Source: Aromatoleum aromaticum EbN1
GTDB taxonomy: Bacteria; Pseudomonadota; Gammaproteobacteria; Burkholderiales; Rhodocyclaceae
Assembly (NCBI RefSeq): GCF_000025965.1
Contig: NC_006513.1
Location: 2,666,001-2,730,000, forward strand
Length of the DNA: 64,000 nt
Direction: 5' to 3'
Part shown: in pieces, positions 5,502-61,334 of the stretch
Position numbering within the stretch: the first letter of the stretch is position 1
How the letters are laid out: every line of letters starts with the position of its first letter
The notes under the pieces: model-generated
The model's database searches: none
Seen by the model: the letters and a program-made list of their open reading frames with translations, nothing else
Told to the model about the DNA's origin: nothing
Program-made: the position numbers and the translations under genes

Positions 5502-6977
<1,476 letters not shown>

Positions 6978-45112: not shown

Positions 45113-45120
45113 GCCACCGG

Positions 45121-45148: not shown

Positions 45149-45170
45149 CGCCGCGCAACCCCTGATTCAT

Positions 45171-46277: not shown

Positions 46278-46468
46278 ACGGATTCGAGAAGGCGGGGATG
46301 CAACGGTTCATTTTCGCACGGCTCTCCCTGTCGTCGCTCCGGCCTGGAGCCGATGCATCGACCGGGTTGACCTGCATCATCGTACGGTGCCGACGCGCTG
46401 TCTTCGCTGCCGTTGTCGACTACATTTGAAGTGAACCTAAAGCTATTTGTGACCGTGCGGAGGAAATC

Positions 46469-46885
46469 ATGACCAATCGTTGCCTTGACCTGATCGTGAA
46501 GGATCACACTCCTGTAACGCTCGCACCCGCCGATACCCTTCGGCGCGCCTGCGAGGCAATGCGGGAACGTAGCGTCGGTGCGGCGCTCGTCGTGGAGGAA
46601 GGGCGGCTCGCCGGCATTCTGACCGGCAGGGACGTGGTCAGAGCGCTCGCGGAAGGCCATGATCCGGGCACCCCGCTTGTGACGGTGATGACGCCCGACC
46701 CGGACACCATCGCGGGCGAGTGCACCGCGATCGATGCGTTGCGCATGATGAGCGACGGCGGCTATCGCCACCTGCCGATCGTCACTGACGGCACCGTCGT
46801 CGGCGTCGTCTCGCGCGGCGACTTCAAGGGCCTGGAACTGGATCGGCTCGAAGAAGAAACCTGCCTGTGGGAGCGGATCTGCTGA
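46469..46885 (+). CDS. CBS-domain-pair protein
   Basis: A 138-residue protein made only of two CBS motifs (LAPADTLRRACEAMRERSVG with LVVEEGRLAGILTGRDVVRA; then IAGECTAIDALRMMSDGGYR with VTDGTVVGVVSRGDFKGLEL). CGGAGGAAATC precedes the ATG. Probably an adenylate-sensing regulator; target unknown. Confidence 0.9.
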   Translation: MTNRCLDLIVKDHTPVTLAPADTLRRACEAMRERSVGAALVVEEGRLAGILTGRDVVRALAEGHDPGTPLVTVMTPDPDTIAGECTAIDALRMMSDGGYRHLPIVTDGTVVGVVSRGDFKGLELDRLEEETCLWERIC

Positions 46886-47088
46886 AGAATCGCAGCCGGG
46901 GGCCGAAGGGCGCGGCGTCCATTGCCGGCGCCGCTCTGGAGGCTGCGCTTGCGGGGCGGGAACGGAGAGGGTAAAAAGCCGCACGATCGGCGGAAGCATG
47001 CCGCTTCCGTTGTCTTGCGGCTGGCGGGGAGCACGAACGGCGCAGGTCGTACGTGCCCACGTCGTCCGGTTCTCCCCTTCGCGAGTTC

Positions 47089-48096
47089 ATGTCAATCTGG
47101 AAAGAGCGTCTTCTTCGCCTCGTCGGGCTGGTTCAGCGTCACCCGAGAACCCTCGCTCTATTCGGATTCGTCTCCGGCATCGCCAGCTTCGTGCTCGTCG
47201 ACCGGCAGGAGGAGTTTGCCCGCGTCATCCCGCTGCTGATGCTGCTGAGCTGGACGTGGCTGGTGCTGGAAAACACTCTGAGCCGCAGCCTGGCGCGCCG
47301 CTTCGGGCATGAGCTGCCGGCGGGTGTGCTGCGCTACGCGACGCAGATGATCCATCAGGAGAGCCTGTTCTTCGTTCTGCCGTTCTTTTTCGTGACGACC
47401 GCATGGAACAGCGGCCAGGCATTCTTTTCCGCGCTGCTGCTCGGCGCGGCGCTCGTCGCGATCATCGATCCCGTCTATTACAAATGGCTCGCGCCGCGGC
47501 GCTGGACCTACCTCGCGTACCACACGCTGACGTTGTTCGCCGTGCTGCTCACCGCGCTACCGATTCTCTTTCACCTGACGACTCCCGAAAGCTACAAGCT
47601 GGCGATCGTCGTCGCGGTGGTACTGTCATTACCCAGCCTCTCGCGCAACGTGCCGTTCGACGGGTGGGGGCGGTGGGCAGCGCTCGGCGCGTTGTCGCTG
47701 GCGCTGGGCGCGACCGGCTGGCTGGCGCGCTCGTGGATACCTCCGGCGACGTTGTGGCTCACCGATGTCGCCGTTACCGCGAGCCTCGACGACCGCACGC
47801 CGGCCGAGAGCCTGGGGACCGTGACGGACGCACAGCTACGATCGACGGGACTCTTTGCCTACACCGCGATCCGCGCCCCGCGCGGGCTGGACGAGCGGGT
47901 CTACCATGTGTGGCAGCACGATGGAATCGAGGTCGATCGCATCGCGCTCGACATCACGGGCGGTCGGAAAGGAGGCTACCGATCCTGGACGCATAAACGG
48001 AATTTTCCCGATAATGCGGTCGGCCGCTGGCAGGTGCGGGTATTGACGGAGGCGGGCCAGATGATCGGCGCGCTGCGGTTCCGGGTCGTGGACTGA
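47089..48096 (+). CDS. membrane protein with C-terminal DUF2914-like domain
   Basis: About 335 residues with six or seven hydrophobic segments in the first 220, then a periplasmic β-rich domain (RAPRGLDERVYHVWQHDGIE, WTHKRNFPDNAVGRWQVRVL) resembling DUF2914. The ATG at 47089 is preferred; a GTG at 47053 is also in frame. Function unknown. Confidence 0.7.
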   Translation: MSIWKERLLRLVGLVQRHPRTLALFGFVSGIASFVLVDRQEEFARVIPLLMLLSWTWLVLENTLSRSLARRFGHELPAGVLRYATQMIHQESLFFVLPFFFVTTAWNSGQAFFSALLLGAALVAIIDPVYYKWLAPRRWTYLAYHTLTLFAVLLTALPILFHLTTPESYKLAIVVAVVLSLPSLSRNVPFDGWGRWAALGALSLALGATGWLARSWIPPATLWLTDVAVTASLDDRTPAESLGTVTDAQLRSTGLFAYTAIRAPRGLDERVYHVWQHDGIEVDRIALDITGGRKGGYRSWTHKRNFPDNAVGRWQVRVLTEAGQMIGALRFRVVD

Positions 48097-48147
48097 GCCG
48101 GCCGCGTGCCTTTCGCCGCACGCAACAAACTTTCAGGGAGATCGGCG

Positions 48148-48747
48148 ATGCAACAGGGGAGCAGGCGCAGGAGCAGTTTACTGATGGGCGTTGCACTGAT
48201 CGCGACGTTTGCAGCCGGCGCGGCGTTCGCCGACAAGCCGGAATGGGCGGGCGGCGGCAAGCCGGACAAGCAGCAGAACGAGCGGCGCGGCGGCGATGAT
48301 GCACGCGAGCGCCGCAGCGATGATCGGCCGCGGCGCGCTGACGAGCACGAGCGGCGCGGCGACAACGACTACCGCGAGCGGCGCGGCGACGACCGGGTTT
48401 CCCGCCATCGCGACAGCGACCGGCCGCGCGTGGACATCCGTTTCGGCGACCGGGAACGCGTCGTCGTCCGTGAATATTATTCAGAGCGGGTTCGCACCGG
48501 CTCCTGCCCGCCCGGTCTGGCGAAGAAAGGTAACGGCTGCATGCCGCCCGGGCAGGCGAAAAAATGGTCGGTCGGAAGACCGCTGCCGCGAGACGTGGTG
48601 TTTTACGATCTCCCGCCGGCGATCGTCGTCGAACTCGGCGTGCCCCCGCGCGGCCACCGCTACGTGCGAGTGGCGGCCGACATCCTGCTGATTGCAGTTG
48701 GCACCGGCATGGTCGTCGATGCGATCGAGGACCTGGGCCGGATGTAA
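48148..48747 (+). CDS. exported Arg/Asp-rich protein with RcnB/CigR-like C-terminus
   Basis: A 199-residue secreted protein. AGGGAGA precedes the ATG at 48148, and a signal peptide ends near AFADK (about residue 29). The middle (about 40-95) is low complexity, with repeated ERRGD-type units and alternating charge. The C-terminus has CPPGLAKKGNGCMPPGQAKK and a final GHRYVRVAADILLIAVGTGM strand, as in RcnB/CigR-type periplasmic proteins. Role unknown. Confidence 0.75.
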   Translation: MQQGSRRRSSLLMGVALIATFAAGAAFADKPEWAGGGKPDKQQNERRGGDDARERRSDDRPRRADEHERRGDNDYRERRGDDRVSRHRDSDRPRVDIRFGDRERVVVREYYSERVRTGSCPPGLAKKGNGCMPPGQAKKWSVGRPLPRDVVFYDLPPAIVVELGVPPRGHRYVRVAADILLIAVGTGMVVDAIEDLGRM

Positions 48748-48804
48748 AGGCCGGCCGACAATCGACGAAACCCGCAGAGAAACCGCAGACCCACCAGGAC
48801 CGAC

Positions 48805-50013
48805 ATGACAAACACACCGACCAGAACGAACGATTCCGCCCATCCCGCGTGGCACGACGAGACGCGCGTGCTGCACGGCGACGCACATCTCTCCGACGAT
48901 GCCGCGATCGTCGCGCCGATCTACTACACTGCGACCTTCAGGGCGTCCGACGCCCGCGACTTCGCCGAGCGTGCGAACACGCCGCGCCACCCGGGCTTCT
49001 ACACGCGCTACGGCAACCCGACGCACCAGCGCGTCGAGGCCGTGCTGGCTGAGCTCGAAGGCACCGAGTCCGCGCTACTGACCGCCTCGGGCATGGGGGC
49101 GATCAGCACGACCGTGCTGGCGCTGGTCTCGGCGGGCGACCACGTGATCGCGCAGCAGCGCCACTACATGAGCACCGCGAAACTGTTCGACGAAGTGCTG
49201 CCCAAGTTCGGCGTCAGCGTCACGTTCGTCGAGCAGAGCGATCTTGCCGCGATCGAAGCCGCGATCCGGCCGAACACGCGCCTGATGATGTTCGAAACTC
49301 CGGCGAACCCGACGCTGGTGCTGACCGACCTCGAAGCCGTCGCCGCCCTCGGACGCAGCCGCGGCATCCTCACCGTCGCGGACAACACCTTCGCTTCGCC
49401 GCTGAACCAGAAGCCGCACGCACTGGGGATCGACATCGTCGTGCACAGCGCGACCAAGTATCTCGGCGGGCACCACGACCTGATGGCGGGCGCCGTGTGC
49501 TGCTCGGAAGCGCTCGCCGAGCGGATCTGGCGCATGCACGTCACGCTCGGCGCGGTGCTGTCGCCGATGGACGCGTGGCTGCTGTTGCGCGGCCTGCGGA
49601 CCTTGCCGGTGCGCATCGAGCGGATCAACGCGACGGCGCTCGCGTTTGCCGGCTGGCTGGAAGCGCAGCCGCAGGTCGAGCAGGTGTTCTACCCCGGCCT
49701 CGAGAGCCATCCGCAGCACGCGCTGGCAAAAAAGCAGATGAAAGGCTACGGCGCCGTGATTGCGTTCGCGGTCAAGGGCGGATTCGATGCGACCCGGCGA
49801 TTCGTTGCCGCGCTCGAACTCGCAACACACGGCGTGAGCCTCGGCGGCGTCGAGTCGCTGGTCGTGCACACCGCCGCGATGTGGTCCGGCACGATGAACG
49901 AAGCGCAGATGAAAGCCGCCGGCATCGCCCCGAACTTCGTCCGCCTGTCGATCGGCCTCGAGCACCTGGAAGACCTCAAGGCCGATTTCAGCCAGGCGTT
50001 CAATCGGGCGTGA
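48805..50013 (+). CDS. PLP-dependent trans-sulfuration enzyme (cystathionine gamma-synthase/lyase family)
   Basis: A 402-residue Cys/Met-metabolism enzyme with the PLP lysine K218 in VVHSATKYLGGHHD and family segments YTRYGNPTHQRVE, TASGMGAISTTVLAL, FETPANPTLVLTDL, VADNTFASPLNQKP and VHTAAMWSGT. It could be a cystathionine γ-synthase, γ-lyase or methionine γ-lyase; sequence alone does not decide. Stand-alone gene, the last before the low-GC block. Confidence 0.9.
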   Translation: MTNTPTRTNDSAHPAWHDETRVLHGDAHLSDDAAIVAPIYYTATFRASDARDFAERANTPRHPGFYTRYGNPTHQRVEAVLAELEGTESALLTASGMGAISTTVLALVSAGDHVIAQQRHYMSTAKLFDEVLPKFGVSVTFVEQSDLAAIEAAIRPNTRLMMFETPANPTLVLTDLEAVAALGRSRGILTVADNTFASPLNQKPHALGIDIVVHSATKYLGGHHDLMAGAVCCSEALAERIWRMHVTLGAVLSPMDAWLLLRGLRTLPVRIERINATALAFAGWLEAQPQVEQVFYPGLESHPQHALAKKQMKGYGAVIAFAVKGGFDATRRFVAALELATHGVSLGGVESLVVHTAAMWSGTMNEAQMKAAGIAPNFVRLSIGLEHLEDLKADFSQAFNRA

Positions 50014-50487
50014 AGCGGGCGTCGCCGGGCGGAGGTGCGAGTCTGTCGGCGGGGTTGGTTTTGCGGATGCTACTGGTTTCTTTGGTTTTTGGAGCCAGTA
50101 GTACAGAGATTTCCACCGCGTGCGAAAGGCCTTTTGATCGGTAAAGTGACGCAGGTAGGAACGCGAGGGTGATCGGGGCGGACTGGCTATTTGCGCCATG
50201 AGCAAGCCATTCATGAACGACGGCATCGACAGTCAGAATTTGATCCGATGGCGGTTTCTCCCCTAATTGCCAAGCGCACCCGCGCTAGAGCTGACACCGA
50301 GCTCCTGACCCCAAATGCATCGGTACTGCTGCTCCGCAAGGCCTGCAGACTTCGCAACCATCTTGCGGTAATCTCTTCGTTTGTCATAATAAAACCATCG
50401 CTGCGTAGCGGCTTCGTCCAACTAGTCGATGGACCCTACGCGCTACAGCGTGGAACTCAGGGCTAGAGGGAGGTGTTGAGCTAAAGC
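50014..50487. other. 474-bp region at the left edge of the low-GC block
   Basis: No gene is recognised. Base composition falls from GC-rich to AT-richer across this stretch, which marks the left boundary of foreign DNA. It ends with GGAGGT 13 bp before the ATG of the McrB-like gene. The TTTGTCATAATAAA segment near 50390 is a possible promoter. Confidence 0.5.
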
Positions 50488-52950
50488 ATGGATAAATACA
50501 GCGAACGTTGGAAGAAATGGTTCAGCAAGGGACAGTCTCCATCTACCGATGATGTCGGAAACCAACCTGACGCGTCTGCGGTTGCCGTTAATCACGACGA
50601 AAACGTGGCGCTTGAAGCTGAGCATGAAGCCAATCTTATGGGCGAAGAGTCATCCGATGAACTGAAGATGCCCCAATCTTATTCTGGTGAGAATGAATCG
50701 CCAAGGGCGACGTTGGTTGCAGCCGGCGTTTCGGCTACCGACTTGTCTCCAAAGCCCGGCTCAACAAAGCGTTATGAGCATCCGGAGCTGAAAGGTATGT
50801 CCGACGCCGAACTGCTACAGGTACTTAGACAGAGTTGGGGATGTTCGGGAAATAAACTAGAGGTTTGGGGACAATTAACGGTCGCGGGTTTCGCCGACAA
50901 ACAGTTCGTGAAATTGTCAGAAGTGCGCAGCGTGCGGGACAACGCTTTCCTGTCGTATCCCTGTGAGGTAGCACACCCACTCAAAGATCGTGGGATTTAC
51001 ATTCCCTCCACATATGGTTGGGATTTGGTCGAATCAGGGCATAAATTCATCCGCTGCGAACTTGAACTCTCTCCCCATAACCACCGAGAAAAACACGGGA
51101 ACCCCCTTGCGGTTACCGTCAAGCCAGGATCCGCAATCCCGCTGAAAAAGATCCCTGTTTCGATCAGCGAGCAACTGATTTCGACTGAAGATGCCACTCT
51201 AATCAGTGAATTGGTTTACGAACATTATCTGGGGTTGAAAAAGCGGGAACTCGGTGAACTGGAATCGAAGCTAAAAGCTGAAATTGAGACCAATGTCGAG
51301 ACGGCAAAACGGGCCTTAATAGAAGTCCTGAGCGCTCAAAAAGAGGCGCAGGCCGAGATGGCCAAGGCTCGAAATGATCATGTTCAGGTTGAGCAGGAAA
51401 ACGCACGCCTGAAAGAGGCAATCAGCCAACTTCAATATCGCCAGACCGAAGAAGCGGAAAAGCTAGTGTTATTGCAAGCAACACATGAAAAGGCAGAGAA
51501 AAAAATGTCACAATACCTTGAACGCCTGAAGCACTATATTGATGACAAAGCCACCATCCTCAAGCAACTCGAATTTATCGATGCTGAAGAGTTCGAGTTG
51601 CTGTTTGGCGATCGGCGGGACAGCAAGAGAGATGAAGGGCGACTGAGTTTTGGGCAAGACTTGGGAGGCGATTATGCCGTAGGGGTTTCGTATATTCAGG
51701 CCTACCTGCTGGAGCGCGACATCCTCTATCCGCGTCATGTGCTTGAAAATTTCTTTGCACTGCTGCGAACGCATGATCTGATCGTCTTGGCTGGCGACTC
51801 GGGATCAGGAAAAACCAATCTGGTGCAGTCGGTTGCAGCGGCGATTGGAGGGGTGGCCAAGATCATCCCGGTGAAGCCGAACTGGACCAGTTCGGAAGAT
51901 CTACTGGGCTACTACAATCCGCTGGAAAAGAAATATTTGGCCACGCCGTTTCTTGAAGCCCTTATTGAGGCCAATAAAAATCCGGATGTGCCATACCTCA
52001 TCTGCCTGGATGAAATGAATCTTGCCCGGGTGGAATATTACTTTGCTGACTTCCTGTCCAAGTTGGAGCAACGGAATGGTGCGCCCGAGGTTGAGTTGTT
52101 TTCAGACAATGAATCCGCCCATGTTCTGTCCGAACTGAGACAGGTAATGGAGATCATTCGCGGTGCAAAGGACAAGTACCAAAAGGAGGATGTGGTCACC
52201 TTCGTCAAACTGTTACAGGATGAAGAGATCAACGCCGAACTCCGCAGGGCTTTTGGCTTCAGCGATAAAGACTCTCTAATTAAATACCATTCCGATATCA
52301 GACGCATGCTAGCGGGAGTATTAAATACGCCTTCCTCTCTCCGGTTTCCGCCTAATGTGCGCATCATCGGCGCCATCAATATTGATGAAACTACACATTA
52401 CTTGTCGCCCAAGATCCTTGACCGGGCACATGTGATGAAATTCAAAAGCCCTCTATTGACGGATTGGCAGAGCATCATCGATCAGGTGACCAGCTATGGC
52501 TTTGGCGACGTCAGCAAACCGTTGCAAGTGGATTTGGACGATCTGGGGCAACGCGTGCCCTATCCAAAATTCGATCAGGACCATCCATTCTGCCGGCGTT
52601 TTGTTGAATTAAACCGAGAGTATTTTCATCCCATGGGGGTGGAGTTTGGCTTGCGCGCTATTCGGCAGGGGCTGAACTACCTCAACATCTTCTCTGAATT
52701 TAATGACGACGTTGATCTGGCCATCAACAACTTTGTACTGCACAAAGTATTGCCAAAGTTGACGTTTGATGGCAACAAGGAGGCGGCGGGGGTCACCAAG
52801 CTGGATCTCCTGTTTGGCTTGGCGGCGAACCTAAACAACGCCCTTGAACTCGATGAATCGTTGGATGACGAATTCTCAGTCAAAAAGGCATTGCCGTTGA
52901 TTGCCAATAAGGCAAAAGCGAACGATGGCATCGTTAACTACTGGGCGTGA
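50488..52950 (+). CDS. McrB-like AAA+ NTPase with coiled coil (defence motor)
   Basis: An 820-residue protein. Residues 1-95 are polar and disordered; about 96-240 form a β-rich domain of unknown type (KLEVWGQLTVAGFADKQFVK, RGIYIPSTYGWDLVE). Residues about 250-350 are a long charged coiled coil. The AAA+ domain has Walker A GDSGSGKTN (436-444), the McrB-type Walker B LICLDEMNLARVEYYFADFL (504-523), sensor GAINIDETTHYLS (628-640) and R646. McrB-family motors translocate on DNA with a McrC-like nuclease. The nuclease gene follows three bases later. Codon use and GC are unlike the surrounding genome, indicating transfer. Confidence 0.82.
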   Translation: MDKYSERWKKWFSKGQSPSTDDVGNQPDASAVAVNHDENVALEAEHEANLMGEESSDELKMPQSYSGENESPRATLVAAGVSATDLSPKPGSTKRYEHPELKGMSDAELLQVLRQSWGCSGNKLEVWGQLTVAGFADKQFVKLSEVRSVRDNAFLSYPCEVAHPLKDRGIYIPSTYGWDLVESGHKFIRCELELSPHNHREKHGNPLAVTVKPGSAIPLKKIPVSISEQLISTEDATLISELVYEHYLGLKKRELGELESKLKAEIETNVETAKRALIEVLSAQKEAQAEMAKARNDHVQVEQENARLKEAISQLQYRQTEEAEKLVLLQATHEKAEKKMSQYLERLKHYIDDKATILKQLEFIDAEEFELLFGDRRDSKRDEGRLSFGQDLGGDYAVGVSYIQAYLLERDILYPRHVLENFFALLRTHDLIVLAGDSGSGKTNLVQSVAAAIGGVAKIIPVKPNWTSSEDLLGYYNPLEKKYLATPFLEALIEANKNPDVPYLICLDEMNLARVEYYFADFLSKLEQRNGAPEVELFSDNESAHVLSELRQVMEIIRGAKDKYQKEDVVTFVKLLQDEEINAELRRAFGFSDKDSLIKYHSDIRRMLAGVLNTPSSLRFPPNVRIIGAINIDETTHYLSPKILDRAHVMKFKSPLLTDWQSIIDQVTSYGFGDVSKPLQVDLDDLGQRVPYPKFDQDHPFCRRFVELNREYFHPMGVEFGLRAIRQGLNYLNIFSEFNDDVDLAINNFVLHKVLPKLTFDGNKEAAGVTKLDLLFGLAANLNNALELDESLDDEFSVKKALPLIANKAKANDGIVNYWA

Positions 52951-52953
52951 TCC

Positions 52954-55557
52954 GTGGGCGACATTCAGGAAGCCAAATACATTCAGGTAATTTGGCAGGA
53001 TCAGGCGACCGCCAAGAAAATTGTGGAGTCGCATGAAGCTTTAGAGTTAGAGGCAGTTGACGAGAACACGGTTCAGGTTGAAATCGTCAACTATAGCCAG
53101 ATTGACAATGGCAGCCAGGGGCAATTTGCCATCCGGCTCGATAGTCAGTCAGACGATGTTCCTCGCTTTGTGCTGGAAAACGGTAGGTCAATAGAGTTGC
53201 TGCCGGTCACCGATCCGGTAACCGGTCTTTGCTGGTGGGTGGAGGGTAAGACTTGGGATAAGCAACGTGGCCGTTGGTTGTCGGACATCTACCGAGGCGC
53301 GGGCCAGGTCCGGATCCAAGTTGGAGCCCACACCTGTCGCGTTAACATCTCCTCTTCAACCTTTACTCATCAACAGTTGGAAGGCTACCTGCGTGACTTT
53401 CAAACTGACTTTTGGGAGCTTATCCTGGATGACACCAGCTACATCAGTGCCGCAGCAAAGCGAAGCCAGCATAACCTATTAGATGAGACGACGCTGCGTG
53501 CCATCAGAAAGTTCATTGAATGTGTGGACCGTGTCCTGCAAAAACCCAAAGTCGAGTTGCGGGAAGTGCAGCGCCTGAAACCCCGCAAGGATGTCAGGCC
53601 GGTGCCTCGAACCTTTATGGAGTTATCCACGCGAGGTACGAGCCGGACATTAACCAGCCGGGCCTATCAGGAAACTTCAGATATCCCGGATAATCGCTAC
53701 GCACACTATGCCCTGCGCAAGGTATATCAAATCACCAAGGCGCTGTGCACTGTCGCGGCCACTCAAGCGCGTTCCATTGAGCGAAGCTTGGTAACTCATC
53801 GACAACGCTTGTCCAAATTTTCCAATCAGAAAGTCATCAATAAAGATGCAGTTATGCATGACATGCAAGATAAGGAGCGAGCGCTGAGAGAGCTGGAAAG
53901 CCAGATGTCTACACAGAACAATTACTTTGCTCAGTTGATTTGCGAACAACCAGTAAATGGTCAGCCATGCTGCCAAGGTACGCATGTCCCTCGCATTCAA
54001 GTAGCCCAAGGTAAAAGGGCAGACTATATTCAAGGAGTTTTTCTTGCCGTCGTGCGTTCACGAGCCGGCAAGGATTGGTTTAAGCCACACGATGGGGGTT
54101 ATGTAACCGTCGACTTTGGTGTGTTCAGCGATCAGATTAGGCCAGAATTTGAATATGAAATATTTGGAGATATTGATTACAACATCATCCGCACCAAGAA
54201 TAAAAAACCAAGGCACAACTTTACACTGCTTGCTGTATCAGAATTTAGGATCGTATATTCGGAGAAATATGAAGATTTAACTGAGCGATTTAGAGTTTAT
54301 CAACAAAAGGTCGGCGATATGGAGAGTCGCAACTGGCGACGCCCATTGAGACCAGATGAAGCCGAGCAGCAGCAACGCGAGACCATTTCTATAGGGAGAA
54401 TTATCGGCTTAGTTGAGGCTAAACACGAGAATTTGGCCACTCTGAGTCGGGAGTTGGCACCAAAATTGCATGCCCTACGTGAAGCGTTAGCGGTCTTTGA
54501 AAAAAAGAAGGTCAAGTTGGATGCCAGATTCCCTAACTCCATGACCTACGTCCAGAATCCAGCTTACCAAGGTATTCATAGCGCCTTTTCGAAGATCAAA
54601 GAGCGGTCTGGCATCGACGATGATGAGATCCTGCTGGCTCTGGATCGCATCGAAGAAATCGGGCTCGTGAATATCTCCATGTTGTACGAACGCTGGTGCT
54701 TGCTTCAAATCATCAAGGTACTGGTGTTTAAGTACCGATACCGGCCGGAGGAGGGCTGGAAACGCAAATTGATCACGCAGGTATTGGATCAGGGACGCAA
54801 TGTAGCAATCGATTTTGAGCATTCGCAGTTGCACCGAAAAATCCGGTTGCACTACGAGATGGAGTTGGAGAATGGGAAGCGACCTGATTTTGTCCTGGAT
54901 GTCGTCCCCGGCTACAATGACAGTGACTCCTCGCGGATGAGGCGCTTTGTTATGGACGCCAAATTCTATCAAGAGATAGATAACAAACGGCACGGCGGTC
55001 TACAGCAAATCGTCTACGAACTCTATAACCAAAAAGATTACGCGGAAGGGGGGCAGAATGCAGTTTTCGTTATGCACCCCTCTTCCAGCGCTCTCCCGAT
55101 TCGAGCAACCCCACAGGAGTGGTCCCGTGACAACTACTATGGCGAAGTGCGGCTCTTTGACTGGGATGAATATCCGCCAAATCATCGATACGGAGGGATT
55201 TATCTTTCGCCGATTGGCAACGGGGCCTATCTCGATTCCTTGCAGCGCGCGATCGGTATGTTTTTGCAATATGGAATAGAGAACAACAATGCAACGTCCG
55301 GCAAGCATGGCGCGTTGCCAGAAAACCCGTTGTTCTGCTTGGTCTGCGGCTCGTCAGATGTGTCCTGCCGACAAAGCCCAAAAAATCAAAAAGCATGGTG
55401 GGTGACTTGCAATGACTGCAATCATTTCACCACGTTCAATTACTGCGGCGGTTGTGGTAACAGGCTGATAAAAAACGGGGAATATTGGTCGTATCATGCT
55501 ATGGAGCCGCTCAACCCATTCAATATAAAGTGCCCGTCATGTGGAGATTTGCTTTAG
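52954..55557 (+). CDS. DUF2357-like McrC-type nuclease with C-terminal zinc ribbons
   Basis: An 867-residue protein starting at a GTG. The N-terminal 440 residues are β-rich with a helical part (about 250-330). Residues about 575-720 look like a PD-(D/E)xK nuclease: YERWCLLQIIKVLVFKY, RPDFVLDVV (PD at 644-645) and RRFVMDAKFYQE (D668, K670), followed by QIVYELYNQKDYA, the usual DUF2357 arrangement. The C-terminus has CxxC pairs at 795/798, 819/822, 831/834 and 860/863, consistent with two zinc ribbons. It pairs with the McrB-like motor immediately upstream, forming a predicted restriction-like complex. Family name DUF2357 is from recognition, not a search. Confidence 0.78.
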   Translation: MGDIQEAKYIQVIWQDQATAKKIVESHEALELEAVDENTVQVEIVNYSQIDNGSQGQFAIRLDSQSDDVPRFVLENGRSIELLPVTDPVTGLCWWVEGKTWDKQRGRWLSDIYRGAGQVRIQVGAHTCRVNISSSTFTHQQLEGYLRDFQTDFWELILDDTSYISAAAKRSQHNLLDETTLRAIRKFIECVDRVLQKPKVELREVQRLKPRKDVRPVPRTFMELSTRGTSRTLTSRAYQETSDIPDNRYAHYALRKVYQITKALCTVAATQARSIERSLVTHRQRLSKFSNQKVINKDAVMHDMQDKERALRELESQMSTQNNYFAQLICEQPVNGQPCCQGTHVPRIQVAQGKRADYIQGVFLAVVRSRAGKDWFKPHDGGYVTVDFGVFSDQIRPEFEYEIFGDIDYNIIRTKNKKPRHNFTLLAVSEFRIVYSEKYEDLTERFRVYQQKVGDMESRNWRRPLRPDEAEQQQRETISIGRIIGLVEAKHENLATLSRELAPKLHALREALAVFEKKKVKLDARFPNSMTYVQNPAYQGIHSAFSKIKERSGIDDDEILLALDRIEEIGLVNISMLYERWCLLQIIKVLVFKYRYRPEEGWKRKLITQVLDQGRNVAIDFEHSQLHRKIRLHYEMELENGKRPDFVLDVVPGYNDSDSSRMRRFVMDAKFYQEIDNKRHGGLQQIVYELYNQKDYAEGGQNAVFVMHPSSSALPIRATPQEWSRDNYYGEVRLFDWDEYPPNHRYGGIYLSPIGNGAYLDSLQRAIGMFLQYGIENNNATSGKHGALPENPLFCLVCGSSDVSCRQSPKNQKAWWVTCNDCNHFTTFNYCGGCGNRLIKNGEYWSYHAMEPLNPFNIKCPSCGDLL

Positions 55558-55568
55558 CCGGTTGTTTA

Positions 55569-56668
55569 CTCAGAAGGCGGGAAGTAAGGCGACATGATGG
55601 GGAACTTTCGCCGTCCTGGCGATCCGATGAGGATGAAACGAGACGGACGAAAACTGGATCACGGGACGCTGGAGACGATTCGTAGGATGGCCATTGAGCG
55701 GGTGCGGGAAGGCGAAGCGCCGAGCCAGGTGATCGCCAGCTACGGATTTCATCGCAGCGTGATCTATCGCTGGCTGAAAGCGGCGGCGGGCCGCGGCCAT
55801 GGGCTGCGGGCGCTGGCGTCGCATCCGATCACTGGACGGCCCCCGAAACTCACCGCGCAGCAGGCGCGGCAGGTATTGCGCTGGATCGACGGGCACTCGC
55901 CGATGGAACATGGCTTCGACACCGGGCTGTGGACACGGGGTCTGGTGCGGGACTTGGTGCAGAGCAAATTTGGCATCACCCTGAGCCTGTCCTCGATTGG
56001 TGCGCTGCTGGCGCGACTGGGCCTGACGGTGCAAAAGCCGCTGCAGCGCGCTTACCAGCGTGATCCGGCGGCGATTGAGCGCTGGCAGCACGAGACCTAT
56101 CCGGCGCTGATGCAGCGTGCCAGGGAAGAGAAAGCCGAGATTCTGTTTTGGGACGAATCCGGCTTTCGCGCCGACGCCGTGCAGGGCAGGACTTGGGGCG
56201 CCAAGGGTCGCACACCGGTGGTCGCGGTGCCCGGGCAGCGGCAAAGTATCAGTGCGGCCTCGGCCGTCAGCATGAAGGGCGGCTTCTGGTTCGCCATCTA
56301 CCCTGGGGCATTGAACGGCGAACTGTTTGTGGACTTGCTCAGGAAGCTGATGCACCGCCGCAGGAAGCCCTTGCACCTGGTGCTCGACGGACTGCCCGCG
56401 CACAAGAAGGCGGGGGTCAAGACGTATGTCGCCAGCACGCAAGGCAAGCTGACGCTGCATTTCCTGCCGGGCTATGCCCCCGACCTGAATCCGGATGAAC
56501 TGGTGTGGAGCCACGCCAAGCGTACCGGCAACGCCCGCCGGCCCCTGCAAAAAGGCGAGACCCTGCAAGAACGTGTGCATGACCAGTTGGCCGATATCGG
56601 CAAGCATCCCGCCTTGGTGCGCTCTTTCTTCAAGCATCCCAGTGTCGCCTATATTTCCGCCTCATGAT
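55569..56668 (+). mobile_element. intact IS630-family insertion sequence
   Basis: 1100 bp bounded by TA dinucleotides (55567-55568 and 56669-56670), as expected for TA target duplication. Left end CTCAGAAGGCGGGAAGTAAG and the right end, read inward as ATCATGAGGCGGAAATATAG, form imperfect inverted repeats that both run on into GCGACA. It carries one transposase gene. It sits 11 bp after the nuclease stop codon. Confidence 0.9.
55594..56667 (+). CDS. IS630-family transposase
   Basis: A 357-residue protein with an N-terminal helix-turn-helix pair (SQVIASYGFHRSVIYRWLKA; RPPKLTAQQARQVLRWID) and the DDE catalytic domain: D187 in LFWDESGFRADA, D265 in HLVLDGLPAHKK and E302 in YAPDLNPDELVWSHAK. No frameshift; the stop codon lies in the right terminal repeat. 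Probably active. A remnant of a relative is at 16947. Confidence 0.95.
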   Translation: MMGNFRRPGDPMRMKRDGRKLDHGTLETIRRMAIERVREGEAPSQVIASYGFHRSVIYRWLKAAAGRGHGLRALASHPITGRPPKLTAQQARQVLRWIDGHSPMEHGFDTGLWTRGLVRDLVQSKFGITLSLSSIGALLARLGLTVQKPLQRAYQRDPAAIERWQHETYPALMQRAREEKAEILFWDESGFRADAVQGRTWGAKGRTPVVAVPGQRQSISAASAVSMKGGFWFAIYPGALNGELFVDLLRKLMHRRRKPLHLVLDGLPAHKKAGVKTYVASTQGKLTLHFLPGYAPDLNPDELVWSHAKRTGNARRPLQKGETLQERVHDQLADIGKHPALVRSFFKHPSVAYISAS

Positions 56669-56954
56669 TAAAACCACGACGAACCAATACGAATGATTGC
56701 TTTTGTCTCTGGAATAAACACGATACAAATTCGGGGGCTAACAAGTTTGCACCTGAGTGGGGCCAGCCGGGTCCCGACGGGAGCAGGGCGCCGGTTTCCG
56801 GCGCCTCGAAAACATCGCATGGCGGGTTCGCGAGCTTACCCGCTGCTGGCTATTCGCACAGGAGTTTCATCGGCCTTCAATGGCCAGCGCTTGATATCAA
56901 CTAAGCTTACTAATATTATCTTGCGACGATAACATTGGTAAGGTTGGTATAACC
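56669..56954. other. region between the IS630 element and the AAA ATPase gene
   Basis: No gene. It contains a perfect GGCGCCGG-TTT-CCGGCGCC hairpin (56787-56805) without a T tract and, close to the next gene, an AT-rich inverted repeat listed separately. Confidence 0.6.
56907..56941. promoter_or_regulatory. operator-like inverted repeat before the AAA ATPase gene
   Basis: TTACTAATATTATC (56907-56920) and GATAACATTGGTAA (56928-56941) are inverted repeats matching at 12 of 14 positions around a 7-bp spacer, 13 bp before the GTG start. A small GGTT-N5-AACC dyad follows directly. Probably a repressor site or a transcript-leader hairpin. Confidence 0.6.
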
Positions 56955-58154
56955 GTGGATCCCGTACGTAACCCATACGCCCCAGGAGCCGGCTCTCCGC
57001 CGCCAGAGCTGGCTGGCCGAGACGAGTTGCGCCGCATCGTGCGAATCGCGCTGCAGCGGATCCGGATCGGCAATCCGGCCAAGAGTGTCCTCTTGGTGGG
57101 GCTTCGGGGAGTCGGTAAAACCGTACTCCTCGAACGGATGCGTATCGATACCGAAGCCGACGGAATGCAGACCGTCCGCATGGAAGCCCCTGAGGGGCGA
57201 TCATTGCCGGCGCTCCTGGCCCCCCAGTTACGAGTCGCGCTGTTGCGTCTGAGCCGAGTCGAAGCAGCAAAGGACATGGCGAAGCGAGGGCTCAGCGCCC
57301 TGGCGGGTTTTGCCAAGGCTTTGCGGATCACATACCACGACATCGAAGTCGGCATCGATTACGAACCCGAACCCGGACTTGCCGATAACGGCGATCTGGA
57401 AACCGATCTGGCTACCCTTCTGGAACAGGTCGGGATCGCTGCGAAAGAGGCCGGCACGGCAGTGGTAATGTTCATCGATGAACTGCAGTACATCAACGAA
57501 GCGCAATTTGCGGCATTGATTTCTGCGCTGCATCGGTGTGCCCAACTGCGCTTGCCGGTCATGCTCGTCGGCGCCGGTCTCCCTCAGTTACGGGAACGGG
57601 CGGGCAGTGCCAAATCCTATGCCGAGCGGCTCTTCGATTACCTGGAGGTCGGCCCGCTTGCCAGCGCTGATGCACGCAAAGCCCTGGAAGCGCCAGCCGA
57701 GGCGCTGGGCGTCAAGTTCGACGACGACGCGGTCAAGGCGATCATTGCTCATACGCGCGGCTATCCCTACTTTCTTCAGGAATGGGGGAAGCACGCCTGG
57801 GATTTGGCCGATGCCAGCCCGATTACGCTGTCCAATGTAGAGCGAGCCAGCACTGTCGCGATCGCTGCCCTTGATGAGAGCTTCTTCCGGGTGCGATTCG
57901 ACCGCATGACCCTGCTGGAGCGCCGTTACCTCAGAGCGATGGCCGAACTGGGGCCGGGGCCGCACCGCTCCGGCGATATTGCTGCCGTCCTTGGCCGGGA
58001 GGTTTCGGCCCTTGCCCCCACACGAGGGAAGATCATCAGCAAGGGTATGGTCTGGAGCCCGTCGCATGGAGATACGGCCTTCACCGTCCCGCTCTTTGAT
58101 GAGTTCATGAAGCGGATCATGCCGGGGGACTCGTGGCGGAACGAATCGGCATGA
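56955..58154 (+). CDS. stand-alone AAA-family ATPase
   Basis: A 399-residue P-loop ATPase starting at GTG (MDPVRNPYAPGAGSPPPELA). Walker A GLRGVGKT (49-56), Walker B VMFIDELQ (171-178), arginine-rich sensor region PQLRERAGSAKSYAERLFDY, then a winged-helix-like C-terminus (GPHRSGDIAAVLGREVSALA). It resembles Orc1/Cdc6-like or STAND-type ATPases common in accessory DNA; role unknown. An operator-like inverted repeat precedes it. It may be part of the defence block, or independent. Its GC looks closer to the host than that of the McrB-like pair. Confidence 0.75.
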   Translation: MDPVRNPYAPGAGSPPPELAGRDELRRIVRIALQRIRIGNPAKSVLLVGLRGVGKTVLLERMRIDTEADGMQTVRMEAPEGRSLPALLAPQLRVALLRLSRVEAAKDMAKRGLSALAGFAKALRITYHDIEVGIDYEPEPGLADNGDLETDLATLLEQVGIAAKEAGTAVVMFIDELQYINEAQFAALISALHRCAQLRLPVMLVGAGLPQLRERAGSAKSYAERLFDYLEVGPLASADARKALEAPAEALGVKFDDDAVKAIIAHTRGYPYFLQEWGKHAWDLADASPITLSNVERASTVAIAALDESFFRVRFDRMTLLERRYLRAMAELGPGPHRSGDIAAVLGREVSALAPTRGKIISKGMVWSPSHGDTAFTVPLFDEFMKRIMPGDSWRNESA

Positions 58155-58178
58155 CCTGCTTCCTGCGACCATGGCCGC

Positions 58179-59381
58179 TCACCACGACGTTTCGCGCTCC
58201 GCGGTCGCCGAGATCCTGTGCAGCGACAGGTCGGCGCCGGCGAATTCCTGTTCGGGGTCGAGCCGCAGCCCCATCGTCGCCTTGATCGCGCCATAGACCA
58301 CCGTGCCGCCGGCGAGCGCGACGACGATGCCGGCGAGCGTTCCGATTGCCTGCGCCGCGAAGCTGACGCCGCCGAGGCCGCCGAGCGCGGTCGAACCGAA
58401 GATTCCGGCCGCGAGGCCGCCCCACGCGCCGCACAGACCGTGCAGCGGCCACACGCCGAGCACGTCGTCGATCTTCCAGCGGTTCTGCGCGACCGTGAAC
58501 AGGAACACGAACAGGCCGCCAGCGACCGCGCCGACTGCCAGCGCGCCGGCAGGGTGCATCAGGTCCGAGCCGGCGCACACTGCGACCAGTCCCGCGAGCG
58601 GGCCGTTATGCACGAAGCCCGGGTCGTTGCGCCCGGCGGCAAGCGCCGCAAGCGTGCCGCCGACCATCGCCATCAGCGAGTTGATCGCGACGAGCCCATT
58701 GACGGCGTCGAGCCGCTGCGCGCTCATGACGTTGAAGCCGAACCAGCCGACGGTCAGGATCCACGCGCCGAGCGCGAGGAACGGGATGCTCGACGGTGGA
58801 TGCGCCGAGATCGCGCCGTTCTTGTGGTAGCGTCCGCGACGCGCGCCGAGCAGCAGCACGGCCGGCAGCGCGACCCAGCCGCCGAAAGCGTGCACGACGA
58901 CGCTGCCGGCGAAGTCGTGGAACTTCGCGCCGAACGCGGCTTCGAGCCAGCTCTGGAAACCGAAGTTGCCGTTCCAGACGACACCTTCGAAGAACGGGTA
59001 GAGAAAGCCGACGATGACGAATGTCGCGATCAGCTGCGGCCCGAAGCGCGCGCGCTCCGCGATGCCGCCGGAGATGATCGCCGGAATGGCCGCGGCGAAA
59101 GTGAGCAGGAAGAAGAACTTGACCAGTTCATAACCCGAGTCGGCGACGAGCCGGTCGGCACCGACGAAAAAATCGCTGCCGTAGGCGAGCGAGTAGCCAA
59201 CGATGAAATACGCGATCGAGGACATCGCGAAATCGCTGATGATCTTCACCAGCGCGTTCACCTGGTTCTTCTTGCGCACCGTGCCGACTTCGAGGAAGGC
59301 GAATCCCGCATGCATCGCGAGCACCATGATGGCGCCGAGCAGCACGAAGAGGACGTCGGCCGGGGGGTTGAACTGCTCCAT
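58179..59381 (-). CDS. amt: ammonium transporter
   Basis: An Amt/Mep/Rh channel of 400 residues from the ATG at 59381, which follows a GGAG site; a TTG at 59414 is also in frame. Eleven hydrophobic segments; motifs FAGSVVVHAFGGWVALPAVL (pore His), GWFGFNVMSAQRLDAVNGL and WPLHGLCGAWGGLAAGIFG (second pore His). No glnK is adjacent, which is unusual for proteobacterial amt. Confidence 0.93.
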   Translation of the reverse strand: MEQFNPPADVLFVLLGAIMVLAMHAGFAFLEVGTVRKKNQVNALVKIISDFAMSSIAYFIVGYSLAYGSDFFVGADRLVADSGYELVKFFFLLTFAAAIPAIISGGIAERARFGPQLIATFVIVGFLYPFFEGVVWNGNFGFQSWLEAAFGAKFHDFAGSVVVHAFGGWVALPAVLLLGARRGRYHKNGAISAHPPSSIPFLALGAWILTVGWFGFNVMSAQRLDAVNGLVAINSLMAMVGGTLAALAAGRNDPGFVHNGPLAGLVAVCAGSDLMHPAGALAVGAVAGGLFVFLFTVAQNRWKIDDVLGVWPLHGLCGAWGGLAAGIFGSTALGGLGGVSFAAQAIGTLAGIVVALAGGTVVYGAIKATMGLRLDPEQEFAGADLSLHRISATAERETSW

Positions 59382-59628
59382 GAACAGGCTCCAATGCAAA
59401 ATCCGATCCACCAAGCAAAGAGCACGCCCAAAAAATCATTCGTTATCTTTCAATGTCTTGTAAATATCTTGCACTGCGGCGCACCGTCGGGATCCCGCTC
59501 GTGGTGCAGGTCGGCAAGTCGGATGCACAATTACGGTGCGACGCGCCTCGTCGCGGTGCCTCGATGTGCGATCGCGAGGCGCTCGTGCGCTCACGGGCCG
59601 GCGGGCGCAAGTTCCAACAGGGCGGACA

Positions 59629-60549
59629 ATGAAAAAGAATCTCGAACTCAAACTGGCGGCCGGGATCCTCGTGCTGCTGTCGCTGATCTGGGGCTACAAC
59701 TGGGTCGTCATGAAGAACGTCATGCGCTATGCCGATCCGTTCGACTTCTCGGCGGTCCGCACGCTGTTCGGTGCGCTGGCGCTGTTCGCGGTGCTCGCGT
59801 TGCGGCGCCAGCCGCTGCGGCCGGTTGCTCTCGGCCCGACGCTGCTGCTCGGCCTGCTGCAGACGACGGCATTCACGGCGCTGATCCAGTGGGCGCTCGT
59901 CAGCGGCGGTGCCGGCAAGACGGCAGTGCTCGTCTATGCGATGCCGTTCTGGTTGCTGCCGATGGCGTGGGTGTTTCTCGGCGAACGGGTGCGCGGCCTG
60001 CAGTGGGTCGCCGTCGCGCTGGCGCTGGTCGGCCTCGTCTTCATCCTCGACCCGTCCAAACCGCAAGGGGATCTCTTCAGCACGATGCTGGCGCTGCTCG
60101 GCAGCGTCGCCTGGGCAGCGAGCGCGATCGTGCTCAAGCGGCTGCGCGCAAGCACCCCGGTCGACCTGCTGTCGCTGACGGCGTGGCAGATGCTGCTGGG
60201 TTCGCTGGTGCTGTGCATCATCGCGTGGTGGCTGCCGTCCGAGCCGCCGCGCCTGACGCCGTATTTCATCGCCGCGCTGATCTACAACGGCCTGCTGGCG
60301 ACCGGGCTCGCGTGGCTGATGTGGCTCTTTATTCTCGACCGCATGCCGGCAGGTCTTGCCGGCCTGTCGTCGCTCGCGATTCCGGCCGTCGGCGTGCTGA
60401 GCGGCTGGATCGAACTCGGCGAGCGCCCGAGCGGACCCGAATCTTTCGGCATGCTGTGCATCGCCGTCGCGCTCGGCCTGATCAGCGCCATCGCGTTGCG
60501 GGGCCGGCAGCTGCAGGCGCGCGCCGCTAGCGCAGGTTCTCGGAGCTGA
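59629..60549 (+). CDS. EamA-family (DMT) transporter
   Basis: A 306-residue inner-membrane protein with ten helices in two EamA repeats: LLSLIWGYNWVVMKNVMRYA in the first and LALLGSVAWAASAIVLKRLR in the second. Possibly a metabolite or amino acid exporter. The ATG at 59629 gives the normal family start (MKKNLELKLAAG). Its 3' end overlaps the convergent lipoprotein gene by 23 bp. Confidence 0.9.
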   Translation: MKKNLELKLAAGILVLLSLIWGYNWVVMKNVMRYADPFDFSAVRTLFGALALFAVLALRRQPLRPVALGPTLLLGLLQTTAFTALIQWALVSGGAGKTAVLVYAMPFWLLPMAWVFLGERVRGLQWVAVALALVGLVFILDPSKPQGDLFSTMLALLGSVAWAASAIVLKRLRASTPVDLLSLTAWQMLLGSLVLCIIAWWLPSEPPRLTPYFIAALIYNGLLATGLAWLMWLFILDRMPAGLAGLSSLAIPAVGVLSGWIELGERPSGPESFGMLCIAVALGLISAIALRGRQLQARAASAGSRS

Positions 60550-60787
60550 ACAGCACCACCTGGTCGGCGACGAAGCTCACCTGCACGTGCCGCTTCTCGT
60601 CGCCCCACGTGCAGCTTTTCACCGTCATCACGTCGCTGCACCGATTCGGCGCGCCGAGCAGCTGCTTGACCTCGTCGTACGTCATCCCGACCCTGATCTT
60701 GTCGTAGTTTTCGACGGTGACCTTGCTGCACGCGGTCGCGGCGGCGCAGAGCGCGGCAAGGCAGAGCAGGCGGGTGAGAGTTTTCAT
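60527..60787 (-). CDS. small lipoprotein, SmpA/DUF3862-like
   Basis: An 86-residue lipoprotein: lipobox ATAC (Cys near residue 20) followed by KVTVENYDKIRVGMTYDEVK and QLLGAPNRCSDV, the typical GM-x-x-x-EV-x-x-LLG-P pattern of the SmpA/OmlA-like fold. Start at 60787 chosen for the signal peptide. Function unknown. Confidence 0.82.
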   Translation of the reverse strand: MKTLTRLLCLAALCAAATACSKVTVENYDKIRVGMTYDEVKQLLGAPNRCSDVMTVKSCTWGDEKRHVQVSFVADQVVLFSSENLR

Positions 60788-60857
60788 CGGCGAATCTCCG
60801 GAAGCGGGAAGGGGTTGGACGCATTGCCAGCGGTGTAACACAGGGTCCTGGCGAGCG

Positions 60858-61304
60858 TCACGCCTTTTGCACCCGCACTGCGCCGCGTGCCGGCTCCGCG
60901 AGATCCGCGGCGATCGCCGCAAGCCCCGCGCGGGCGACTTGCGCGTCCTCGCCGGCCTTGACGCCGGACACCCCGACTGCGCCGATCACGTTGCCGTCGA
61001 TGACGATCGGCTCGCCGCCTTCGAGCGGCACGACCGGCATCGCGAGCGCGGCGTAGCGGCCGCTGTTGACCATGTCTTCGAAAGCTTTGCTCGGCTTGCC
61101 GGTCATCACGCAGGTGCGGGCTTTTTCGGGAGCGACGACGGCGCTCATCAGCGGCGCGGCGTCCATGCGCTGCAGCCACAGCGGATGACCGCCCGCGTCG
61201 CACACGGCGATGCTCACCGCCCAGCCGTTCGCGACGGCTTCGGCTTCGGCCGCCGCGGCGATACGTTTGACGTCGTCGAGCGTCAGTGCCTTGATGTCCT
61301 TCAT
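60858..61304 (-). CDS. GlcG/HbpS-family heme-binding-like protein
   Basis: A 148-residue protein with the GlcG features LDDVKRIAAAAEAEAVANGW, VSIAVCDAGGHPLWLQRMD and GEPIVIDGNVIGAVGVSG. AGGAGA precedes the ATG. Members are often found with glycolate/glyoxylate genes; here it follows the glycerate kinase gene. HbpS relatives bind heme. Confidence 0.9.
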   Translation of the reverse strand: MKDIKALTLDDVKRIAAAAEAEAVANGWAVSIAVCDAGGHPLWLQRMDAAPLMSAVVAPEKARTCVMTGKPSKAFEDMVNSGRYAALAMPVVPLEGGEPIVIDGNVIGAVGVSGVKAGEDAQVARAGLAAIAADLAEPARGAVRVQKA

Positions 61305-61334
61305 TGGCTGTCTCCTTCGTTTCGAGTGTGCGGG

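What the first reader, a model, noticed from the sequence alone, without database searches (positions are those of the whole stretch)
50488..55557. Two-gene McrB-like motor / DUF2357-like nuclease system with coiled coil and zinc ribbons
Seen: an AAA+ gene with McrB-type Walker B (LDEMNLARVEYY) and an upstream 100-residue coiled coil, followed after three bases by a gene with PDF...DAK nuclease spacing and four CxxC pairs at the C-terminus. The block has lower GC and different codon use from its flanks. Known: McrBC-type systems restrict modified DNA, and coiled-coil-rich relatives exist. Inference: this is a mobile defence module. The β-rich domain before the coiled coil and the double zinc ribbon could give a target specificity (nucleic acid type or modification) different from classic McrBC.
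Basis: partly seen in the sequence, partly recalled or inferred. Interest (0 to 1): 0.85.

Follow-up and report, generated by a model that had tools for sequence, protein, structure and literature searches.

The report
Two-gene CoCoNuT (McrBC-like) defence module
A bacterial chromosome carries a two-gene immunity-type module, a nucleotide-driven motor with a long coiled coil plus a partner nuclease, that matches a type described in 2024 (Type I-A CoCoNuT); it looks like an ordinary, well-preserved member whose target is not yet known.

Summary
Two adjacent genes (50488-52950, 52954-55557) encode an McrB-like AAA+ protein with a 122-residue predicted helix and an McrC-like protein with an intact PD-(D/E)xK site and four CxxC pairs, in a low-GC block.

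Both proteins match one PADLOC candidate system over nearly their full length (PDC-M26A 1.5e-295, PDC-M26B 2.9e-272). The pair fits the published Type I-A CoCoNuT (Bell et al. 2024, eLife): two genes, NxD instead of NxxD, and a helical insert between Walker B and NxD (119 residues apart here, 51-61 in seven insert-less relatives). Two published features, the cold-shock-like fold of CnuB and the Ig-like domain of CnuC, stayed inconclusive.

A CnuC-like gene directly follows in 68 of 80 related loci, and 173 plasmid records carry relatives. The same chromosomal slot in a sister species holds type III RM and Menshen matches: a defence hotspot.

So: real and intact, but already described as a kind. 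My searches found no test of Type I-A. Best guess: motor-driven nuclease restriction of invading nucleic acid; whether the target is modified DNA or RNA/ssDNA is open.

The parts
50488..52950 (+). cnuB-like gene (McrB-family AAA+ motor, 820 aa; PDC-M26A)
   Evidence: PDC-M26A 1.5e-295 over residues 94-820
50488..50772 (+). N-terminal extension of CnuB (residues 1-95), mostly predicted disordered
   Evidence: pLDDT under 50 at 1-3 and 14-92; 95 residues before this column in the window, 3-42 in 40 of the 44 other rows, 74-108 in 4
50797..51162 (+). beta-rich N-terminal domain of CnuB (about residues 104-225), position of the published cold-shock-like OB fold; fold not confirmed here
   Evidence: DSSP; no sequence-profile match to cold-shock domains
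51202..51567 (+). long helix / coiled-coil region of CnuB (residues 239-360)
   Evidence: pLDDT of the ten-residue blocks 58 at its start, 77-91 after
51793..51816 (+). Walker A GDSGSGKT (436-443)
   Evidence: G436, G439, G441, K442 in 45 of 45 rows
52006..52020 (+). Walker B LDEMN (507-511)
   Evidence: LDEMN in 45 of 45 rows
52105..52326 (+). helical insert between Walker B and NxD (about residues 540-613), the published Type I-A hallmark
52378..52389 (+). NxD signature NIDE (631-634)
   Evidence: NxD in 45 of 45 rows
52954..55557 (+). cnuC-like gene (McrC-family nuclease, 867 aa, GTG start; PDC-M26B)
   Evidence: PDC-M26B 2.9e-272 over residues 6-865
52963..53352 (+). N-terminal beta domain of CnuC (residues 4-133), position of the published Ig-like sandwich
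   Evidence: weak filamin and UNC119 matches, position inferred
53476..53784 (+). DUF2357 (McrC N-terminal) match, residues 175-277
   Evidence: E 0.004, below the curated cut-off; 38 of 47 rows match at E up to 0.1
53686..54504 (+). long helices (245-287, 297-331, 437-458, 467-517) carrying a beta/OB-like domain (347-436)
   Evidence: SSB OB folds are frequent among the weak matches (position in the model inferred)
54682..55077 (+). PD-(D/E)xK nuclease core with E579, P644-D645, D668-A-K670
55336..55542 (+). C-terminal zinc-ribbon region with four CxxC pairs
   Evidence: weak double-zinc-ribbon match and weak RNA polymerase subunit matches
55594..56667 (+). IS630-family transposase gene next to the module (not part of the mechanism)
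   Evidence: the only match in its genome

Best explanation
A Type I-A CoCoNuT (PADLOC PDC-M26): a two-component McrBC-like restriction module acquired horizontally into a defence hotspot. Inferred mechanism: CnuB assembles as an AAA+ ring that hydrolyses GTP (by homology; NxD variant). CnuC's DUF2357 region docks in the ring and stimulates hydrolysis. The long coiled coils hold or gate the assembly. OB-like domains and the C-terminal zinc ribbon bind the target nucleic acid. On recognition, the CnuC PD-(D/E)xK domain cuts invading nucleic acid. Shown here by sequence and prediction: family, architecture, intact catalytic and zinc residues, operon conservation, presence on plasmids, hotspot. 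Inferred: defence activity, GTP use, target type, cleavage.
For: Near-full-length PADLOC matches. NxD motif and Walker B-NxD spacing of 119, against 51-61 in 7 of 7 insert-less McrB relatives compared; all 45 rows (window plus 44) keep LDEMN, NxD and a spacing of 119 (40) or 116 (5). Catalytic residues the same in 47 of 47 rows. AF2 models: CnuB pLDDT 79.2, pTM 0.58; CnuC pLDDT 86.6, pTM 0.83. Top CnuC match is chain G of the Thermococcus McrB-McrC assembly 6ut7, followed by many SSB OB folds, all weak. The CnuB profile matches E. coli McrB, E 0.0014. A CnuC-like ORF on the same strand in 74 of 80 loci, directly adjacent (28-nt overlap to 14-nt gap) in 68 of 80. In 398 phylum genomes the three full-length A hits and the three full-length B hits are the same three places. 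173 of 72,556 plasmid records carry a relative. One relative lies beside BREX, six of 80 beside type I RM genes. The same slot holds type III RM plus Menshen matches in a sister species.
Against: No activity was tested. The cold-shock-like fold of CnuB was not confirmed by sequence (HHalign probability 2.07) and the Ig-like domain of CnuC only weakly. DUF2357 in the window protein is under Pfam's cut-off. CnuC structural matches all have E above 0.001 (best TM-score on the query 0.18). Best sequence hit of the CnuB profile in the PDB was a coiled-coil protein, E 0.0012, just ahead of McrB. Only one of the four CxxC pairs has the CPxC form the paper mentions. Six of 80 loci have the CnuC-like ORF further off (382-3226 nt) and six have none, five of these at a contig end. 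The authors' reference sequences were not compared.
Confidence: 0.9

Rival explanations
1. A modified-DNA restriction enzyme that works like classic E. coli McrBC, only with a different reader domain.
For: [quoted passage not shown] intact catalytic residues; top structural match of CnuC is to a McrB-McrC complex; relatives next to BREX and type I RM.
Against: No DUF3578 (ADAM) or EVE match in the window CnuB at E up to 1 or among the 25 commonest of 74 Pfam families over 45 rows; NxD instead of NxxD; SSB-type OB matches hint at single-stranded nucleic acid.
Confidence: 0.4
2. An RNA-targeting or abortive-infection effector: OB-like domains sense RNA or RNA:DNA hybrids, and nuclease activity kills or arrests the infected cell.
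For: Published prediction for CoCoNuTs (PMC11090510 abstract, section 8, section 9 passages); OB-like and zinc-ribbon regions.
Against: By the paper Type I-A has only CnuB and CnuC, without the HEPN RNases and helicases on which the RNA argument mainly rests; none was found in the five flanking genes scanned. [quoted passage not shown]
Confidence: 0.35
3. A co-opted, non-defence McrB relative, as PcdA in Staphylococcus aureus cell division.
For: Such co-option exists (PMC10602043, passages read).
Against: By that paper PcdA lacks the McrC partner and has eroded motifs; here both proteins keep their catalytic motifs. The family is patchy in the genus: 2 of 17 genomes have it, at different sites with CnuB only 37% alike, which fits an accessory gene.
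Confidence: 0.04
4. A decayed or inactive remnant carried by an insertion sequence.
For: An IS630 gene lies 36 bases downstream.
Against: Both ORFs are full length with all motifs; the IS has one match in this genome and lies outside the operon.
Confidence: 0.03

Closest known systems
Type I-A CoCoNuT, CnuB + CnuC (Bell et al. 2024, PMC11090510)
   Same: Two genes; NxD motif; helical insert between Walker B and NxD; long helix before the GTPase domain; CnuC with N-terminal beta domain, long helices plus an OB-like domain, intact PD-(D/E)xK and zinc-ribbon region.
   Different: 95-residue, mostly disordered N-terminal extension on CnuB; four CxxC pairs, one of them CPxC; published reference sequences not compared directly.
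PADLOC candidate PDC-M26 (A and B)
   Same: Both proteins match over nearly full length, 1.5e-295 and 2.9e-272.
   Different: No difference found; it is a label only, and the name PDC-M26 occurs in no paper of the held library.
Classic McrBC (E. coli K-12, Thermococcus gammatolerans)
   Same: AAA+ motor of the McrB family and McrC-like partner.
   Different: NxD not NxxD; helical insert; coiled coils; no DUF3578 match; extra OB-like and zinc-ribbon regions.
Type II/III CoCoNuT (PMC11090510)
   Same: NxD GTPase with coiled coil; McrC-like partner.
   Different: No helicase, HEPN effector or TerY-P gene among the five flanking genes scanned; nuclease site intact, whereas the paper calls it inactivated in Type II and lost in Type III-A.

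Membership tests
Type I-A CoCoNuT | NxD instead of NxxD GTPase signature, usually followed by E or D | tested here: met
   NIDE at 631-634; NxD in 45 of 45 rows, followed by E or D in 43
Type I-A CoCoNuT | Helical insert between Walker B and NxD, stated to distinguish I-A from all other CoCoNuTs | tested here: met
   Spacing 119 in window, L004, L005 versus 51-61 in 7 other NxD McrBs; helices 540-613 predicted
Type I-A CoCoNuT | Coiled coil fused N-terminal to the CnuB GTPase domain | tested here: met
   Single helix 239-360 predicted; no dedicated coiled-coil program was run
Type I-A CoCoNuT | Cold-shock-like OB fold at the CnuB N-terminus | tested here: inconclusive
   Beta-rich domain predicted at about 121-211; no profile match to four cold-shock sequences of the same genome; Foldseek output is not resolved by domain
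Type I-A CoCoNuT | Ig-like beta-sandwich at the CnuC N-terminus | tested here: inconclusive
   All-beta region 4-133 predicted; only weak filamin and UNC119 matches
Type I-A CoCoNuT | Coiled coils and an OB domain inserted into DUF2357 of CnuC | tested here: inconclusive
   Long helices around a beta domain at 347-436 are predicted and SSB OB folds are frequent among weak matches, but aligned ranges are not shown and Pfam matches only the part of DUF2357 before the insert
Type I-A CoCoNuT | PD-(D/E)xK nuclease with catalytic residues kept | tested here: met
   PDDEXK_7 1.3e-6; P644, D645, D668, K670 in 47 of 47 rows; activity not tested
Type I-A CoCoNuT | C-terminal zinc ribbon (paper: three CPxC motifs) | tested here: inconclusive
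   Four CxxC pairs, one of form CPxC
Type I-A CoCoNuT | Only CnuB and CnuC, no other CoCoNuT gene | tested here: met
   Five flanking genes scanned: Cys/Met PLP enzyme, DUF5924 protein, IS630, AAA_16 protein, ammonium transporter
Type I-A CoCoNuT | Placement by GTPase phylogeny with the published sequences | tested here: inconclusive
   The window falls in the 44-row insert-bearing group (99/99), but the authors' sequences were not in hand, 3 of 54 rows were dropped by my motif filter, and the tool warned of long branches
Type I-A CoCoNuT | Targets RNA (authors' prediction) | not testable with these tools
   Needs biochemistry
PADLOC PDC-M26 | Adjacent A and B proteins matching the profiles over nearly full length | tested here: met
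   residues 94-820 and 6-865
Classic McrBC (NxxD branch) | NxxD signature | tested here: not met
   NIDE
Classic McrBC (NxxD branch) | DUF3578 (ADAM) methylcytosine reader fused to McrB, as in the E. coli prototype | tested here: not met
   No such Pfam match in the window protein at E up to 1, nor among the 25 of 74 families shown for 45 rows

The most novel reading that the evidence does not exclude
A minimal, self-contained CoCoNuT in which an McrC-type nuclease with an SSB-like OB domain mounted on coiled-coil stalks, driven by an NxD GTPase with a remodelled site, recognises single-stranded nucleic acid, RNA or RNA:DNA hybrids rather than a modified base. That would make it a Type IV-like restriction enzyme that senses a replication or transcription intermediate of the phage.
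Probability: 0.35. Interest if true: 0.6.

Novelty: new member of a known kind. Interest (0 to 1): 0.3.

Why it matters
With two proteins and an intact nuclease, Type I-A is among the simplest CoCoNuTs, so it is a convenient place to test whether this branch of McrBC-like systems cuts RNA or DNA. The 2024 paper states that no NxD McrB GTPase had been characterised. The window also reveals a chromosomal slot that holds defence genes in two sister species, useful for finding further systems in this genus.

Tried and rejected
Classic McrBC membership was rejected (NxD motif, no DUF3578 match), though it may still work like one. Type II/III CoCoNuT was rejected (no helicase, HEPN or TerY-P gene among five flanking genes; intact nuclease). 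A virus-borne origin was not supported: a pattern-based scan of viral contigs confirmed no relative, and 50,697 phage records gave one weak partial match at the 1e-20 limit. Attachment repeats at the ends were sought; only short imperfect repeats were found, none bracketing the module. A link to cold-shock domains by sequence profile found nothing: one search had three of four sequences on the wrong strand; repeated correctly, probability 2.07 (CnuB) and 0.12 (CnuC insert). The IS630 gene as carrier was considered: one match in the genome, no second boundary seen.

Whether CnuC's inserts lie inside DUF2357 was lowered from met to inconclusive.

Limits: 44 of 80 loci were used with the window for the CnuB alignment and 46 of 80 for the CnuC alignment, chosen by me, mainly for long ORFs and spread. 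L092-L098 (distant) and L038 (broken frames) were among those left out. The tree dropped L046, L067 and L087 because a Walker A pattern missed them. One search summed BLAST bit scores over pieces.

Full report
1. Observation. Genes at 50488-52950 (820 aa) and 52954-55557 (867 aa, GTG start) are intact and three bases apart. Their GC is 49.6% and 49.3%, against 66.0% for 40000-50013 and 67.4% for 58174-64000 (profile). GC3 is 0.56 in both, against 0.82-0.89 in six neighbouring genes, 0.77 in the IS630 gene and 0.70 in the AAA_16 gene.

2. Family. Pfam gives AAA_5 for the first protein, and PDDEXK_7 (1.3e-6), a sub-threshold DUF2357 (0.004) and a weak double zinc ribbon for the second. NCBIfam has no match above its cut-offs for either. 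PADLOC matches both over nearly their full length: PDC-M26A 1.5e-295 (residues 94-820) and PDC-M26B 2.9e-272 (6-865). That 'PDC' stands for a defence candidate is recalled, not read in a call.

3. Type. The CoCoNuT paper (PMC11090510: outline and abstract, sections 7 and 8 whole, part 1 of 2 of section 11, and passages of sections 4, 6, 9, 10 and 14) gives Type I-A as CnuB and CnuC only, with an NxD GTPase motif and a helical insert between Walker B and NxD that sets it apart from all other CoCoNuTs. In the window the motif is NIDE and the Walker B-NxD spacing is 119 residues. It is also 119 in two relatives found by profile (L004, L005), but 51-61 in seven other NxD McrB proteins. Across 45 rows (window plus 44 relatives) the spacing is 119 in 40 and 116 in 5; LDEMN and NxD are present in all 45.

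4. Nuclease and zinc site. In 47 rows (window plus 46 relatives) E579, P644, D645, D668 and K670 are invariant. Cysteines 795, 798, 819, 822 and 863 are invariant; 831 and 860 are Cys in 46 and 834 in 40. The nuclease is therefore intact by sequence, unlike Type II CnuC as the paper describes it. The window has four CxxC pairs, only one of CPxC form, whereas the paper speaks of three CPxC motifs.

5. Structure. AF2 models were made from those two alignments. CnuB: pLDDT 79.2, pTM 0.58; residues 14-92 below 50; beta-rich domain about 121-211; helix 239-360; helices 540-613 in the insert. CnuC: pLDDT 86.6, pTM 0.83; all-beta 4-133; helices 245-331 and 437-517 around a beta domain at 347-436; nuclease; zinc region. 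Foldseek for CnuC puts chain G of the Thermococcus McrB-McrC assembly first (E 5.3e-3, TM-score on the query 0.18), then many SSB OB folds. No match has E below 0.001 and aligned ranges are not shown, so that chain G is McrC and that the OB fold lies at 347-436 are inferences. CnuB's best matches are MCM helicases, with magnesium chelatase, dynein and NorQ also listed. By profile CnuB matches E. coli McrB (E 0.0014), just behind a coiled-coil protein (E 0.0012). The cold-shock-like fold of CnuB was not confirmed by sequence.

6. Distribution and linkage. Of 260 confirmed relatives in genome contigs the best 80 were kept. A CnuC-like ORF on the same strand is present in 74 of 80, directly adjacent (28-nt overlap to 14-nt gap) in 68; in six it starts 382-3226 nt further on, and six have none. 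Five of these last six lie within 465 bases of a contig end; the sixth (L095, a distant Clostridium relative) has 7562 bases of room. In 398 genomes of the phylum three had a full-length A match and the same three a full-length B match next to it; a fourth B match is a fragment at a contig start. Five further genomes, and a second place in G592, match A only partly; these are insert-less McrBs. In 199 genomes of the family one (the window's) had a full-length A match and one a partial match; that sample held 6 genomes of the genus. In all 17 held genomes of the genus there are 2: the window's and G595, whose copy lies elsewhere. That copy is the same locus as L059 (12 kb identical), named Aromatoleum anaerobium, so the window's genus is that of this species; its CnuB is 37% and its CnuC 27% identical to the window's, with 1267 nt between the two genes. 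Plasmids: 173 of 72,556 records, 160 of them over at least 80% of the query. Phages: one weak partial match. Viral contigs: none confirmed. In the tree (51 rows) the window groups with Shewanella, Undibacterium, Vibrio and other proteins (21 rows, 95/93; the nearer fork has only 84/71), not with the Aromatoleum or Comamonas ones, which fits horizontal transfer.

7. Neighbourhood. Of 17 same-genus genomes, five including the window's have the left flank at 92-100% identity. Homology on the left ends at 50013-50232 and resumes on the right at 56757 (G100), 56857 (G595) or 58174 (G599); in G596 a 77-bp piece at 56757 is followed at once by homology from 59611. Between the flanks: G100 has about 9.5 kb with a type III RM pair enclosing NsnA (1.3e-112), NsnB (2.1e-108) and NsnC (1.5e-10) matches; G595 has about 4 kb with a 503-aa protein with a weak AAA_16 match and a MUG113-domain protein, neither in PADLOC; G599 has 1.6 kb with two small proteins, neither in PADLOC; G596 has 1.2 kb, whose ORFs were not scanned. 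So the slot is variable and holds defence-type genes in two species, the window's and G100. Elsewhere one relative lies beside BREX on an E. coli plasmid, another near tellurium-resistance genes on a Klebsiella plasmid, and relatives of the type I RM genes of L063 lie near 6 of 80 loci, L063 included (all three subunits).

8. Literature. Searches showed me no paper that names PDC-M26 or reports a test of a Type I-A CoCoNuT; they cover only the held open-licence library, and most listed papers were seen as listings only. A Type II CoCoNuT cloned in Pseudomonas aeruginosa PAO1 was among the systems reported to resist at least one phage (PMC12735699, section 3.4 read and passages). A Staphylococcus aureus paper assigns a Type I-B CoCoNuT and says that RNA targeting remains to be established (PMC12554148, passages). 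A 2025 preprint calls Druantia types I and II a fourth group of CoCoNuTs (PMC12458937, passages). A 2025 review cites the CoCoNuT paper only in its reference list (PMC12707154, one passage).

9. Mechanism. Shown by sequence and prediction: architecture, conservation, presence on plasmids, context. Inferred from McrBC: ring-shaped GTPase activated by CnuC, nuclease triggered on recognition. Open: target. I put the DNA and RNA/ssNA readings close to even because the nuclease fold favours DNA and the OB-like domain favours single-stranded nucleic acid.

10. Verdict. Real, intact, and an ordinary new member of a published type. Interest is moderate because the type's target is an open question that this two-gene version would make testable.

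Noticed in passing
window 50013-56857; L129, L130, L131, L132: The slot between a Cys/Met-metabolism PLP enzyme gene and an AAA_16/ammonium-transporter pair is variable in this genus; one sister species carries type III RM plus Menshen NsnABC matches there.
   Followed up: partly
L130:4650-5438 and 5893-7404: In the same slot of another sister species, a MUG113-domain protein and a 503-aa protein with a weak AAA_16 match; no PADLOC match at E up to 0.01. Possibly an undescribed defence pair.
   Followed up: partly
window 50488-50772: CnuB has a 95-residue, mostly disordered N-terminal extension that begins with a short predicted helix; 40 of 44 relatives have 3-42 residues there. Either a real addition or a misplaced start.
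   Followed up: partly
L018:7474-8736 (own genome, about 3.91 Mb): A gene with a McrBC component match (PF10117, 4.7e-19) next to a partial PDC-M26A match, suggesting a separate McrBC system in the same genome.
   Followed up: partly
L013:2370-17453: In genome G592 an insert-less NxD McrB with a DUF2357/PDDEXK_7 partner sits next to HmaA and HmaB matches, about 6 kb from that genome's own Type I-A-like pair.
   Followed up: partly
L147:7048-12955 (same as L059): The Aromatoleum anaerobium genome (G595) carries its own, distant copy of this family at another site, with 1267 nt between the two genes; what lies in that gap was not looked at.
   Followed up: partly
window 56955-58154: AAA_16 protein with lower GC3 (0.70) than its chromosomal neighbours, conserved beside the slot in two sister species and matched on another contig in a third (G192, 91%); function unknown.
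   Followed up: no
L038: The Enterovibrio relative with the highest identity of the 80 (64-66%) appears to have broken reading frames in both genes; not mended or used.
   Followed up: no
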